In this document: one piece after another, positions 26,173 to 31,923 of the stretch
How the letters are laid out: every line of letters begins with the position of its first letter
Position numbering within the stretch: position 1 is the first letter of the stretch
Assembly: GCF_001428025.1 (NCBI RefSeq)
Contig: NZ_LMSC01000006.1
Coordinates: 304,269-350,982 of the forward strand
From: Phycicoccus sp. Soil748
GTDB lineage: Bacteria > Actinomycetota > Actinomycetes > Actinomycetales > Dermatophilaceae
Direction of reading: 5' to 3'
DNA length: 46,714 nt
The notes under the pieces: generated by a model
The model's input: the letters and a program-made list of their open reading frames with translations, nothing else
Database searches by the model: none
Told to the model about the DNA's origin: nothing
Program-made: the position numbers and the translations under genes

Positions 26173-27783
26173 CTACCGGTGGACCGGCGGCGCGGGGGCG
26201 GGGGACAGGGGGGTCGCCTCCGCGAGGTCCGGCCGGTCGTTCCACCGCGCGATGAGGTCGACGGACTTCAGGAGCCGGGTCGAGACCGGCCCCGCTGTGC
26301 TCGCGACGTCGACGACCTCACGCACCCAGGTGTCGACGTCGACGCCGGCCGCGACCAGACGGTAGGCGACCGCGATGACGCCGGTGCTCTTCCAGATGCT
26401 CTCGCCCGAGGGGATGCCGTGGACGTTGGGACGGCCGCCGAGCAGCTCGTTGAGCCGGCGGCCCACCGCCCGCGGCGGGCCGAGCGGGCAGTAGAGGCTG
26501 GGCTCCTCGAAGCTCGGCCCCGCGCCGGCATACACGTGCTGGGGCTCGACCGCGGCGATCCTGGACACGGGCAGGCCGGGCAGGATCCGCACCCCGACGC
26601 CCCACGTCACCTGCACCGCCTCGGGCACCTGGCGGGCCCAGGCGACCGTCTCCAGCGCGGTCTCCCAGGTCTCGCCGGGCATGCCGAACATGATGTTGAG
26701 CACGGAGGTGACCTCGTGCCGCACCAGGACGTCGACGAGCTGGTCGAGGTGGCGCCGTCGCACCGGTCGGCGGTTGGCCACCAGGACGCTGTCGACCGCC
26801 GAGTCGACCGTGATCTCCGGGAAGCCGTTGGTGGCCTTGACGAGCTCGGCCAACCGGTCGGAGAACGGGCGCGGGTTGAGGTATCCGGACCACCGCAGGT
26901 CGGGTGCGTAGCCGCGGTCGACGATGCCCTGCAGCACCGCGACGGCGTGGTCCTCGGTGGGCAGGTTGAGCTCCTCGTCGGCGAAGTGGATGTCGCCGAC
27001 GACCCCGATCTCCCGGGACCGGTCGACGACCTCGCCGATCTCGTCGAGGACGAGGTCGAGGGAGTAGTTGGCGTTGACGCCGGAGGTGTTGGACGAGGTG
27101 CAGTAGGAGCAGAACATCCCGCAGCCGGTGCGGGTGCGGACCGGGGCCGAGAAGACCGGGGCGAACAACGGGTCGCGCCGCGTGGTCGTCGCCAGGGCGG
27201 CGGTTGCGGGGCGCACCGGCAGCGTGCAGCCCCGGTGGACCAGGCCGTCGACCCCCGACAGGGGTGCCGACGTCCGGATCCGGTGCGCGAGGTCGACGAC
27301 CGCGGCCTCGCCGTTGCCGAGGATGCCGAGGTCGACGCCGAGCGCGTCGAGGAGCATCTGCGGTGCCGTCGGGAACGCCGCGCCGCCCACGACGAAGGTG
27401 GCGTCCGGGGCGCCGCGCCTCGCGGCGTCCACGAGGCCCCGGATCTGGCGCAGGAGCGGGGTGCTGTCGCTGGAGGTGTCGGCGCCGTCCGTGGTCTCCA
27501 CCGGGACCAGGGTGTCGACGACGCGCAGCGAGAAGCCGACGAGGTCGGGGGCCAGCTCGCGCAGGCGGGTGGTGAGGTGCCCCTCGGCCTCGTCCTCGGG
27601 CCGTTCGAGGTACGGGTCCACGATCGTCACGACCGCGCCGGAGTCCTCGAGGGCGGTGCGGAGCCGGTACAGGCCGTACGGGGGCACCGGCCGCCAGGTC
27701 TGCCAGGGGTTGGCGTGCACCAGGGCGACCCGCATCCCGCCGAGGTCGGCCCGCATCACCGGGGCCGGCGTCTGGCTGCGCAT
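26173..27783 (-). CDS. Cobalamin-binding-domain radical SAM protein
   Basis: 536 residues. The N-terminal 200 or so residues (MRVALVHANPWQTWRPVPPYGLYRLRTAL; FVVGGAAFPTAPQMLLDALGVDLGILGNGEAAV) form a B12-binding-like domain of the BchE/class B type. A radical SAM barrel follows with C221-x3-C225-x2-C228 (TGCGMFCSYCTSS) for the 4Fe-4S cluster. A C-terminal region of about 130 residues is not recognised. Such enzymes often methylate or rearrange carbon centres in natural-product or cofactor pathways; the substrate here is unknown. ATG 27783 has only a distant GGAGG, and ATG at residue 17 is an alternative start. It lies 84 bases downstream of the MFS gene on the same strand. Confidence 0.8.
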   Translation of the reverse strand: MRSQTPAPVMRADLGGMRVALVHANPWQTWRPVPPYGLYRLRTALEDSGAVVTIVDPYLERPEDEAEGHLTTRLRELAPDLVGFSLRVVDTLVPVETTDGADTSSDSTPLLRQIRGLVDAARRGAPDATFVVGGAAFPTAPQMLLDALGVDLGILGNGEAAVVDLAHRIRTSAPLSGVDGLVHRGCTLPVRPATAALATTTRRDPLFAPVFSAPVRTRTGCGMFCSYCTSSNTSGVNANYSLDLVLDEIGEVVDRSREIGVVGDIHFADEELNLPTEDHAVAVLQGIVDRGYAPDLRWSGYLNPRPFSDRLAELVKATNGFPEITVDSAVDSVLVANRRPVRRRHLDQLVDVLVRHEVTSVLNIMFGMPGETWETALETVAWARQVPEAVQVTWGVGVRILPGLPVSRIAAVEPQHVYAGAGPSFEEPSLYCPLGPPRAVGRRLNELLGGRPNVHGIPSGESIWKSTGVIAVAYRLVAAGVDVDTWVREVVDVASTAGPVSTRLLKSVDLIARWNDRPDLAEATPLSPAPAPPVHR

Positions 27784-29554: not shown

Positions 29555-30835
29555 GTGCCGATCGTCGTCCAGAAGTACGGCGGCTCATCGCTGGCTGACG
29601 CCGCCAGCATCAAGAGGGTCGCCCGCCGGATCGCCGAGGCGAAGAAGGCCGGCAACGACGTCTGCGTGGCCGTGTCGGCCATGGGTGACAGCACCGACGA
29701 GCTGCTCGACCTCGCCAACGAGGTCAGCCCCCAGCCCCCGCCGCGCGAGATGGACATGCTGCTCACCGCGGGTGAGCGCATCTCGATGGCGCTGGTCGCC
29801 ATGGCCATCGCCGACCTCGGCTACACCGTGCGCTCCTTCACCGGCAGCCAGGCAGGCGTCATCACCGACTCCTCGCACGGCAAGGCGCGCATCATCGACG
29901 TGACGCCGGGCCGGGTGACCGACGCCCTCGACAAGGGCCACATCGTCATCGTCGCCGGGTTCCAGGGCGTCAGCCAGGACACCAAGGAGATCACCACGCT
30001 GGGCCGTGGTGGCACCGACACCACCGCCGTCGCGCTGGCCGCCGCCCTCGGCGCCGACGTGTGCGAGATCTACACCGACGTCGACGGCGTGTTCACCGCC
30101 GACCCGCGCATCGTCCCCGCGGCCCGCAAGATCGCCCGCATCTCCAACGAGGAGATGCTCGAGCTCGCCGCCTCCGGCTCCAAGGTGCTGCACCTGCGCA
30201 GCGTCGAGTACGCCCGCCGCTTCGGCATCCCGATCCACGTCCGCAGCTCCTTCTCCGCGAAGGAGGGCACCATCGTCACGGACACCCCCACCACCACCAC
30301 CGCAGGAGAGACCGTGGAAGCCCCCATCATCGCCGGTGTCGCCCACGACCGGAGCGAAGCGAAGATCACGGTCGTCGGCGTCCCCGACCACCCCGGCAAG
30401 GCCGCCGAGATCTTCCAGACCTGCGCCGACGCCGAGATCAACATCGACATGATCGTCCAGAACGTGTCGGCGACCGAGACCGGCCTGACCGACATCTCGT
30501 TCACCTGCCCCAAGACCGACGGGCAGACCGGCGTGCAGGCCCTGCGCAAGGTGCAGGACTCGGTGGGGTTCAGCTCGATCCAGTACGACGACCAGATCGG
30601 CAAGCTGTCGCTCGTGGGTGCCGGCATGCGGTCCCACCCGGGCGTCTCGGCCACCTTCTTCAAGGCGCTGGCCGACACCGGCGTCAACATCGAGATGATC
30701 TCCACCTCCGAGATCCGCATCTCCGTCGTCACCCGTGCGGAGGTGCTCGACGACGCCGTCCGTGCGGTCCACACGGCGTTCGGGCTCGACTCCGCCGACG
30801 GGGAAGCCGTCGTCTACGGGGGCAGCGGCCGGTGA
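29555..30835 (+). CDS. lysC: Aspartate kinase, alpha subunit
   Basis: 426 residues, close to the 421 of Corynebacterium LysC. It phosphorylates aspartate in the first step to lysine, threonine, methionine and diaminopimelate. The amino-acid kinase domain (1 to about 250) starts [11 protein letters not shown]. Two ACT domains (about 260-335 and 345-420) serve lysine/threonine feedback. GTG 29555 with AGGAG eight bases upstream gives the conserved [10 protein letters not shown] start; the frame open to 29396 is not conserved. An in-frame internal start encodes a beta subunit. It overlaps asd by 4 bases. Confidence 0.95.
30314..30835 (+). CDS. Aspartate kinase, beta subunit (internal in-frame start)
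   Basis: GTG at codon 254 of the aspartokinase gene is preceded by AGGAG (30304-30308) at good spacing. Translation would give 173 residues starting [17 protein letters not shown] and containing only the two ACT domains. The Corynebacterium lysC beta subunit (172 residues) starts at the equivalent place, and the alpha2-beta2 enzyme is feedback-inhibited. The match in position and length makes a true internal start likely. Confidence 0.7.
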
Positions 30836-31923
30836 GCTCACTCGCCTCGAGGGCCCCCAGGCCGACCCTGGCCCTGGTGGGTGCGACGGGCGCGGTGGGC
30901 TCGGTCACCCAGCAGGTGCTTGCGATGCGGGCCGACATCTGGGGGGAGATCCGGGCTGCCGCCGCGCCCGAGGACGCCGGCACCGAGCTGACCGTCTGCG
31001 GTCGCGACGTCGTCGTCCAGCACCTCACGCCGGAGTTCTTCGACGGGGTCGACATCGCCCTCGTGGACCTGCCCGCACCGGTCGCCGCCCACTGGGCCCC
31101 GGTCGCGGCGGCCCGTGGCGCGGTCGTCATCGACAACAGCTCGGCGCTGCGCGGCGACCCCGACATCCCGCTGGTGGTGCCGGAGGTCAACCCGCTCCAG
31201 GTCCGCAACCGCCCCAAGGGCATCATCGCCAACCCTGGTGCCACGACGCTCACGATGATCGACGCGCTCGGCGTGCTGCACACCGGGTGGGAGCTCACCG
31301 AGCTCGTCGTCGCCACCTACCAGGCGGCCTCTGGTGCAGGACGCGCCGGTATGGCGCGCCTGCACGACGAGCTCGAGGTGGTGGCCGGCCACCGCGAGCT
31401 GGGCCAGCAGCCCGGCGACGTGCGCCGCCTCATCGAGTTCGAGCTCGGCACCGAGTCGCCCTTCCCGGCTCCGCTGGCCCTCAACGTGCTGCCCTGGATC
31501 GGGACCGCGGCCGAGGATGGCTGGACCACCGAGGAGCTCAAGATCCGCAACGAGACCCGCAAGGTGCTCGGCCTCCCTGACCTGCGCGTGTCGGCGACCT
31601 GCGTCCGCGTCCCGGTCGTCTCGACGCACTCGGTGGCGGTGCACGCGACGTTCGCCCGGCCGATCGACGTCGACGAGGCCCGGCAGGCGCTCATCGAGGC
31701 GCCGGCCGTCGTCGTGCTCGACGACCCGGAGACGACCGAGTTCCCCACGCCCAACGACACCGTGGGCTCGGACCCCCGGTTCGCGGGGCGGCTGCGCCAG
31801 GCGCTCGACTTCCCCAACACGCTCGACTTCTTCATCTGCGGCGACAACCTGCGCAAGGGCGGGGCGCTCAACATGGTGCAGGTCGCCGAGCTCGTCGCCC
31901 GAGACCTCGCCGTCGCCGCCTGA
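30832..31923 (+). CDS. asd: Aspartate-semialdehyde dehydrogenase homologue lacking the catalytic cysteine
   Basis: 363 residues with a GTG start overlapping the aspartokinase stop. The whole family frame is present: LVGATGAVG for [59 protein letters not shown] with a following THS that carries the base histidine, and [12 protein letters not shown]. Where the family has N-C in IIANPNCTT, this protein reads IIANPGATT (A137, codon GCC). The cysteine that forms the acyl-enzyme is therefore absent, and no other cysteine lies nearby. The frame is intact on both sides. Either the enzyme is inactive (regulatory or structural) or chemistry differs; a second, normal asd would then be needed. Confidence 0.85.

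What the first reader, a model, noticed from the sequence alone, without database searches (positions are those of the whole stretch)
30832..31923. Aspartate-semialdehyde dehydrogenase homologue without its catalytic cysteine
The highly conserved N-C of the active site (ANPNCTT) reads G136-A137 (ANPGATT), while every other family signature is kept and the frame is continuous. Two adjacent residues differ, so a single-base error does not explain it. It is coupled to aspartokinase, where normal asd lies. The protein may be a pseudoenzyme that regulates or channels aspartyl phosphate, with a true asd elsewhere, or may use other chemistry.
Basis: partly seen in the sequence, partly recalled or inferred. 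Interest (0 to 1): 0.75.

Follow-up and report, generated by a model that had tools for sequence, protein, structure and literature searches.

The report
Aspartokinase-coupled dead semialdehyde dehydrogenase twin
Next to the gene that starts lysine, threonine and methionine synthesis, this soil bacterium and its relatives keep a well preserved but apparently non-working copy of the next enzyme in the pathway, while a working copy sits elsewhere in the genome, which suggests that the dead copy has taken on a new, probably helper or sensing, role.

Summary
Window 30832-31923 (+) encodes a full-length aspartate-semialdehyde dehydrogenase (Asd) homologue whose GTG start overlaps the aspartokinase stop, with G136-A137 where Asn-Cys belongs. 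The genome has a second, NPNCTT-bearing asd elsewhere. It is no sequencing error: of 99 ask-linked homologues read in the family, 48 carry GA and 81 lack Cys at the catalytic position; all 99 have ask upstream. A separate Asn-Cys Asd was read in 76 of the 81; the other five are fragmented assemblies. Sixteen family genomes showed only this copy: 12 keep Asn-Cys, four (fragmented) do not. Median omega is 0.13, against 0.12 for the active copy. Best reading: a retained, substrate-binding pseudoenzyme coupled to aspartokinase, with catalysis moved to the second Asd. Ligand and partner are inferred, not shown. Ten literature searches found no paper on it. NCBI's Asd models still accept it, so annotation will call it an enzyme.

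The parts
30832..31923 (+). Asd paralogue without the catalytic Cys (here called Asd2), GTG start, 363 aa plus stop
   Evidence: Open frame; Pfam PF01118 and PF02774; NF011456 364.2 bits against cut-off 223; AlphaFold model pLDDT 81.9, best PDB matches ASADH
31237..31242 (+). GGT GCC = G136-A137 in place of the catalytic Asn-Cys
   Evidence: Sequence; alignment to EcAsd N134-C135; GA in 48 distinct homologues
30964..30975 (+). A45-P46-E47-D48 in place of S-x-R-S, directly after strand 40-44; NADP side of the cleft
   Evidence: An STS motif is named as NADP-binding in passages of PMC9385607; that it is EcAsd S36-T37-S38, which aligns to 44-46 here, is my reading of the sequence
31150..31152 (+). 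R107, retained; aligns with S. pneumoniae Arg99, said to bind the substrate phosphate
   Evidence: Alignment; role from a passage of PMC9385607; kept in 46 of 48 GA sequences
31321..31323 (+). Q164, retained (EcAsd Gln162)
   Evidence: (48 of 48)
31531..31542 (+). E234 to K237, both retained (EcAsd Glu241, Lys244)
   Evidence: (47 of 48 each)
31606..31608 (+). R259, retained; aligns with S. pneumoniae Arg245, said to bind the substrate carboxylate
   Evidence: (47 of 48)
31627..31629 (+). H266, retained (EcAsd His274)
   Evidence: (48 of 48)
29555..30835 (+). Aspartokinase (ask); start GTG 29555 inferred; its TGA stop overlaps the Asd2 start by 4 bp (GTGA)
   Evidence: ORF, sequence; start offset -4 in 10 of 11 same-genus genomes

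Best explanation
The protein is a conserved pseudoenzyme. Shown by sequence: an ask-linked Asd that is the only Asd found in many actinomycetes has, in genomes with a second Asd, lost the Asn-Cys dyad, and in this clade also the S-x-R-S motif of the NADP side, while the domains, the substrate residues and the place after ask stay under purifying selection. Follows from known chemistry: without the thiol no thioester forms, so it should not run the ordinary Asd reaction; the second copy does that. Inferred: it is made in step with aspartokinase and works as a non-catalytic partner that binds beta-aspartyl phosphate or aspartate semialdehyde, either on aspartokinase (stabilising it, regulating it or holding its labile product) or as the inactive half of a mixed dimer with the active Asd. 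My odds: not a working NADP-dependent Asd 0.93; a functional protein rather than a relic 0.9; binds the old substrate or a close analogue 0.55; acts through aspartokinase 0.4, through a mixed dimer with Asd1 0.25.
For: Second NPNCTT asd in the same genome. 22 representative GA rows, the window's included, on one starred branch, all GA (quick tree, SH-aLRT 99). 99 of 99 family Asd2 genes read have ask on the same strand upstream. R107 46, Q164 48, E234 47, K237 47, R259 47, H266 48 of 48 GA sequences. S-x-R-S lost throughout the GA clade, with acidic residues at 47 and/or nearby. Residues fixed in 21 clade representatives where active relatives have another (R316 20/21, M348 19/21) or vary (E202, E204, R176 21/21). 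Median omega 0.131 (asd2), 0.116 (asd1), 0.078 (ask) in the window's genus; 0.11-0.26 for asd2 in the six GA genera with three or more sequences. At least 5 changes between Cys and no Cys on the tree, read as losses.
Against: No experiment, expression or interaction data. 74 of 186 family genomes have no Asd2-type match (3 of these gave no match at all and are 58-75% complete); one, G179, 99% complete, belongs to genus g2, where 11 other genomes carry the GA form: the function is dispensable. Four Cys-less genomes showed no second Asd (G075, G084, G094, G112; 79-94% complete, 210-550 contigs); incompleteness is my explanation, not shown. A second copy does not force the loss: 6 two-copy family genomes keep Cys, as do 15 of 16 f34 genomes read (13 NC). 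The independent-pairs test of Cys loss against a second copy has about one informative pair and says nothing. Other Cys-less sequences mostly lose substrate residues instead, so substrate binding is not common to all dead copies, and in genera g7, g65 and g66 asd2 has a clearly higher omega than asd1 (0.30/0.17, 0.23/0.15, 0.31/0.20). The model is weak at residues 161-220 and 301-320, which takes in Q164.
Confidence: 0.6

Rival explanations
1. Neofunctionalised enzyme: the cofactor site switched from NADP to NAD and the pocket does other, thiol-free chemistry on an aspartyl or related substrate.
For: Acidic residues right after strand beta-2 (E47, D48; strand 40-44 in the model) are the textbook NAD-type pattern (recalled); glycine motif G17, G20, G23 kept; Gln, His and both Arg kept; clade-specific residues on what is probably the cofactor side.
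Against: I know of no member of this family that works without the thiol (recalled). The dyad changes in many directions on the tree (SA, SG, GP, TG and more), which looks like loss rather than a new active site. No gene beside it suggests a new reaction.
Confidence: 0.18
2. Kept mainly for ask: the coupled frame persists because its translation or mRNA protects ask expression, and the protein itself does little.
For: 4-bp start-stop overlap in 10 of 11 same-genus genomes and ask upstream in 99 of 99.
Against: Asd2 lies downstream of ask, so ask does not need it for coupling; constraint on its amino acids in GA genera is about that on Asd1; outside the genus only few GA loci have the -4 offset (L040/L091, L086).
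Confidence: 0.07
3. Slowly decaying relic after the second Asd made it redundant.
For: 74 of 186 family genomes lack it; one same-genus copy has a broken N-terminal frame (L014); raised omega in some non-GA genera.
Against: GA fixed in 48 distinct sequences with substrate residues kept in 46-48 of 48; omega 0.11-0.26 in GA genera.
Confidence: 0.07
4. Still a slow Asd that uses another residue (for example C257) or water in place of the cysteine.
For: Other substrate-site residues kept; C257 present in 48 of 48 GA sequences.
Against: C257 is as invariant in active enzymes (129 of 129), so it is probably structural; the NADP-side motif is lost too; the genome keeps a normal Asd.
Confidence: 0.04

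Closest known systems
Bacterial-type aspartate-semialdehyde dehydrogenase, asd_B (TIGR01296, NF011456)
   Same: Both Pfam domains, fold, substrate residues, gene order after ask; above both NCBIfam cut-offs
   Different: No catalytic Cys or its Asn; S-x-R-S gone; a second, complete Asd in the genome
E. coli Usg / USG-1 family (NF005957, NF004224)
   Same: Asd paralogue without the catalytic Cys (P-D-S at the dyad), true asd elsewhere; Usg too has Glu at the R47 position
   Different: Window protein scores far below the Usg models (151.5 and 159.1 bits against 273 and 284); Usg has lost both substrate arginines (A, Q), the Gln (I) and the Lys (R), and sits between pdxB and truA, not at ask
Other Cys-less ask-linked Asd2 (36 distinct sequences; many from tandem ask-asd1-asd2 loci such as L032, L103, L107)
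   Same: Same Asd2 lineage on the tree, dead dyad, active Asd1 in the genome
   Different: Mostly keep S-x-R-S (R47 25 of 36) but lose substrate residues (R259 kept in 9, K237 in 4, Q164 in 23 of 36): the opposite decay mode
HisZ of ATP phosphoribosyltransferase (recalled, not tested)
   Same: Dead enzyme paralogue kept as a partner at the first step of an amino-acid pathway
   Different: Unrelated fold; partner function established there, inferred here

Membership tests
Aspartate-semialdehyde dehydrogenase (asd_B) | Profile score above the curated cut-off | tested here: met
   NF011456 364.2 against 223; TIGR01296 328.2 against 324.2, barely
Aspartate-semialdehyde dehydrogenase (asd_B) | Catalytic Cys preceded by Asn | tested here: not met
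   G136-A137
Aspartate-semialdehyde dehydrogenase (asd_B) | S-x-R-S motif on the NADP side | tested here: not met
   A-P-E-D instead
Aspartate-semialdehyde dehydrogenase (asd_B) | Substrate residues: two Arg, Gln, Glu, Lys, His | tested here: met
   R107, Q164, E234, K237, R259, H266
Aspartate-semialdehyde dehydrogenase (asd_B) | Dimerisation domain and ASADH fold | tested here: met
   PF02774 147.1 bits; Foldseek best hit 8juo, TM 0.78 by query and 0.85 by target; the dimer was not modelled
Aspartate-semialdehyde dehydrogenase (asd_B) | Enzyme activity | not testable with these tools
   -
Usg / USG-1 | Profile score above the curated cut-off | tested here: not met
   NF005957 151.5 against 273; NF004224 159.1 against 284
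Usg / USG-1 | Catalytic Cys absent beside a true asd | tested here: met
   for the window genome; 21, 59, 62 for E. coli
Usg / USG-1 | Substrate arginines replaced; pdxB-usg-truA setting | tested here: not met
   R107 and R259 kept; ask-linked

The most novel reading that the evidence does not exclude
The clade has turned an Asd into a ligand-sensing subunit: a dead, NADP-blind (possibly NAD-reading) protein, made in step with aspartokinase, that binds beta-aspartyl phosphate or aspartate semialdehyde and tunes or protects the first committed step, so that entry into the pathway is set by a former second-step enzyme. The repeated loss of the cysteine would then be repeated recruitment of the redundant copy.
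Probability: 0.25. Interest if true: 0.8.

Novelty: new variant of a known kind. Interest (0 to 1): 0.6.

Why it matters
Within one bacterial family the same gene is found as the only Asd (dyad kept), as a redundant copy (dyad kept or eroding), as a conserved dead copy in two different decay modes, and as a lost gene. That makes the question of how an enzyme becomes something else directly testable, in a pathway that feeds lysine, threonine, methionine and cell-wall diaminopimelate. It is also an annotation trap: curated Asd models accept the dead copy, so metabolic models may give the reaction to the wrong gene.

Tried and rejected
Sequencing error: rejected, GA recurs in 48 distinct sequences. 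No second asd: rejected. Relic: disfavoured by omega and conservation in GA genera. Usg orthologue: rejected by scores and residues. Independent-pairs test of Cys loss against a second copy: run, uninformative. Literature: the ten searches listed no paper on a Cys-less ask-linked Asd; most subscription journals are not held. Papers seen: PMC4751538 (passages, sections 8 and 9), PMC9385607 (passages), PMC6358828 (passages); all others only as search listings.

Full report
What is there. The frame at 30832-31923 is open and 363 aa long. Its GTG start overlaps the TGA of the aspartokinase gene as GTGA. It matches both Asd domains of Pfam and passes NCBI's Asd models NF011456 (364.2 bits, cut-off 223) and, barely, TIGR01296 (328.2, cut-off 324.2). 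The dyad that is Asn134-Cys135 in E. coli Asd is Gly136-Ala137.

The genome has a working-type copy. A search of the whole genome with the dimerisation domain gave three places: this gene, an argC, and an Asd of 344 aa with ANPNCTT (L001 1447-2481 -), 44% identical to the window protein. No ask lies beside it in the 3.6 kb held.

The family picture. In the window's family, 112 of 186 genomes examined have a match of this ask-linked type ('Asd2'; counted from the list). Of these, 99 were read. All 99 have ask upstream on the same strand, at most about 1.4 kb away. 17 have NC, one has AC, and 81 in 27 genera have no Cys at the catalytic position: GA 48, SA 7, GP 7, SG 6, TG 2, NA 2 and nine pairs seen once each; two of those nine, CA and CG, have a Cys one place earlier. 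Of the 18 with Cys, 12 gave no other Asd match, all 12 NC (three of these assemblies are under 90% complete); the other 6 do have a second Asd. Of the 81, 76 have an Asd1 whose dyad was read, NC every time. In G076 the Asd1 match is cut short of the dyad. In G075, G084, G094 and G112 none was found; these assemblies have 210-550 contigs and are 79-94% complete. All 98 genomes in which an Asd1 dyad was read have NC. A further 74 Asd2 genes from outside the family (two of them from genomes of untold family) were read, all with ask: 70 NC, one SC, one GC, and two without Cys (G051, GS; G330, GG), both in genomes with an NC Asd1. In many genomes of the class sample an Asd2-type match is the only one, so Asd2 is an ordinary active enzyme by origin. 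A second copy is not enough for loss: 13 of 16 f34 genomes read have NC, and one each SC, GC and GG. Two named Streptomyces have DC and GC in genomes with an NC Asd1. So in some lineages the Asn goes first; in others (NS, NA, NG) the Cys.

The tree. On 121 representatives, built without the dyad and motif columns (44-49, 135-139), Asd1 is one side of a branch with support 100; 22 of 23 GA rows, the window's among them, form one starred clade (quick tree, SH-aLRT 99); the 23rd (G014) lies elsewhere. Cys against no Cys needs at least 5 changes, and NC against any other dyad at least 7, among the Asd2 rows. That these are losses follows from NC in Asd1 and in the complete single-copy genomes (inference). 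The independent-pairs test against presence of a second copy is uninformative, because most pairs have the second copy on both sides; this fits 'second copy first, loss later' but does not test it.

Two ways of dying. In 129 active sequences S45, R47 and S48 are invariant or nearly so. In the 48 GA sequences S45 is kept in 5; R47 is E in 38 and D in 6; S48 is D in 44 and E in 2. Three GA-clade representatives without an acid at 47 have acids at 45, 46 and 48; the GA row outside the clade (G014) keeps S-D-R-S. These positions directly follow strand 40-44 of the model. PMC9385607 names an STS motif as NADP-binding (passages); by my reading it is EcAsd 36-38, which aligns with 44-46 here. That this spot meets the 2'-phosphate is recalled. 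In contrast R107 and R259, which align with the S. pneumoniae arginines said there to bind the substrate's phosphate and carboxylate, and Q164, E234, K237 and H266, are kept in 46-48 of 48. The 36 other Cys-less sequences mostly do the opposite: R47 kept in 25, but R259 in 9 (Q in 24), K237 in 4, Q164 in 23. E. coli Usg lies between: it has lost the substrate residues (A, I, R, Q at 107, 164, 237, 259) but also has Glu at 47.

Selection. Pairwise Nei-Gojobori omega (my own script) in the window's genus, 11 genomes and 55 pairs: Asd2 median 0.131, Asd1 0.116, ask 0.078. In the six GA genera with at least three sequences the Asd2 median runs from 0.109 to 0.256, and Asd1 in the four of these with enough sequences from 0.116 to 0.320. 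Elsewhere it is not always so: in g7 (NC/NS), g65 (NA/NG) and g66 (GP/GD) Asd2 is at 0.300, 0.233 and 0.308 against 0.166, 0.146 and 0.198 for Asd1. In the GA clade new residues are fixed (R316, M348, E202, E204, R176), which speaks for a gained constraint. The same call shows changes at 45-48, 80-86, 104-108, 163, 169 and 348-351; that these lie on the cofactor side is partly recalled from ASADH structures.

Structure. AlphaFold2 on 15 sequences gave pLDDT 81.9 and pTM 0.78, weak at 161-220 and 301-320. Of the 50 PDB matches listed by Foldseek, 49 are titled Asd; the other, 2ep5, is called a hypothetical Asd.

Reading. The protein should not run the ordinary Asd reaction, is not a plain relic, and sits where an Asd partner of aspartokinase would be. 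I take it as a conserved pseudoenzyme that still holds the old substrate or a relative of it and acts on aspartokinase or on the active Asd. Partner and ligand are inference. The NAD reading of the acidic motif is the main rival and the more novel one.

Names. Loci whose coordinates fit those of G008, G009, G006, G010 and G002 are Phycicoccus sp. Root101 and Soil802, Pedococcus bigeumensis, Pedococcus sp. 5OH_020 and Knoellia koreensis, so the window's genus is Pedococcus or its close kin (inference).

Noticed in passing
L014 (genome G005, same genus): The GA homologue there matches in two frames near its N-terminus with a stop inside: a broken or mis-assembled copy, the only one with an internal stop among the 219 distinct sequences extracted.
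   Followed up: partly
L172, L182, L185 (G493, G433, G330) and L043, L044: Streptomyces-type genomes with two Asd show erosion of the dyad in the ask-linked copy (SC, GC, GG, DC, GC) while 13 of 16 f34 genomes read keep NC: possible intermediates.
   Followed up: partly
L119-L124 (genera g62, g66), L101 and L113: A more divergent ask-linked Cys-less branch with P-G-P or P-G-D at the dyad, Gln at 259 and a changed glycine motif (GATGRFA or GAKGRFA): a third style of dead copy.
   Followed up: partly
L047 3573-4565 (alphaproteobacterial MAG): An Asd homologue with SVPSAD at the dyad, 28% identical to the query, no ask found in the 7.2 kb held: another Cys-less Asd-like protein outside actinobacteria.
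   Followed up: no
L236 and L240 (G188): The same Asd1 appears twice in one genome at identical score, perhaps an assembly duplicate (contamination 5%).
   Followed up: no
window 26173-27783 (-): A long open frame that looks like a B12-binding radical SAM protein (CxxxCxxC; judged by eye).
   Followed up: no
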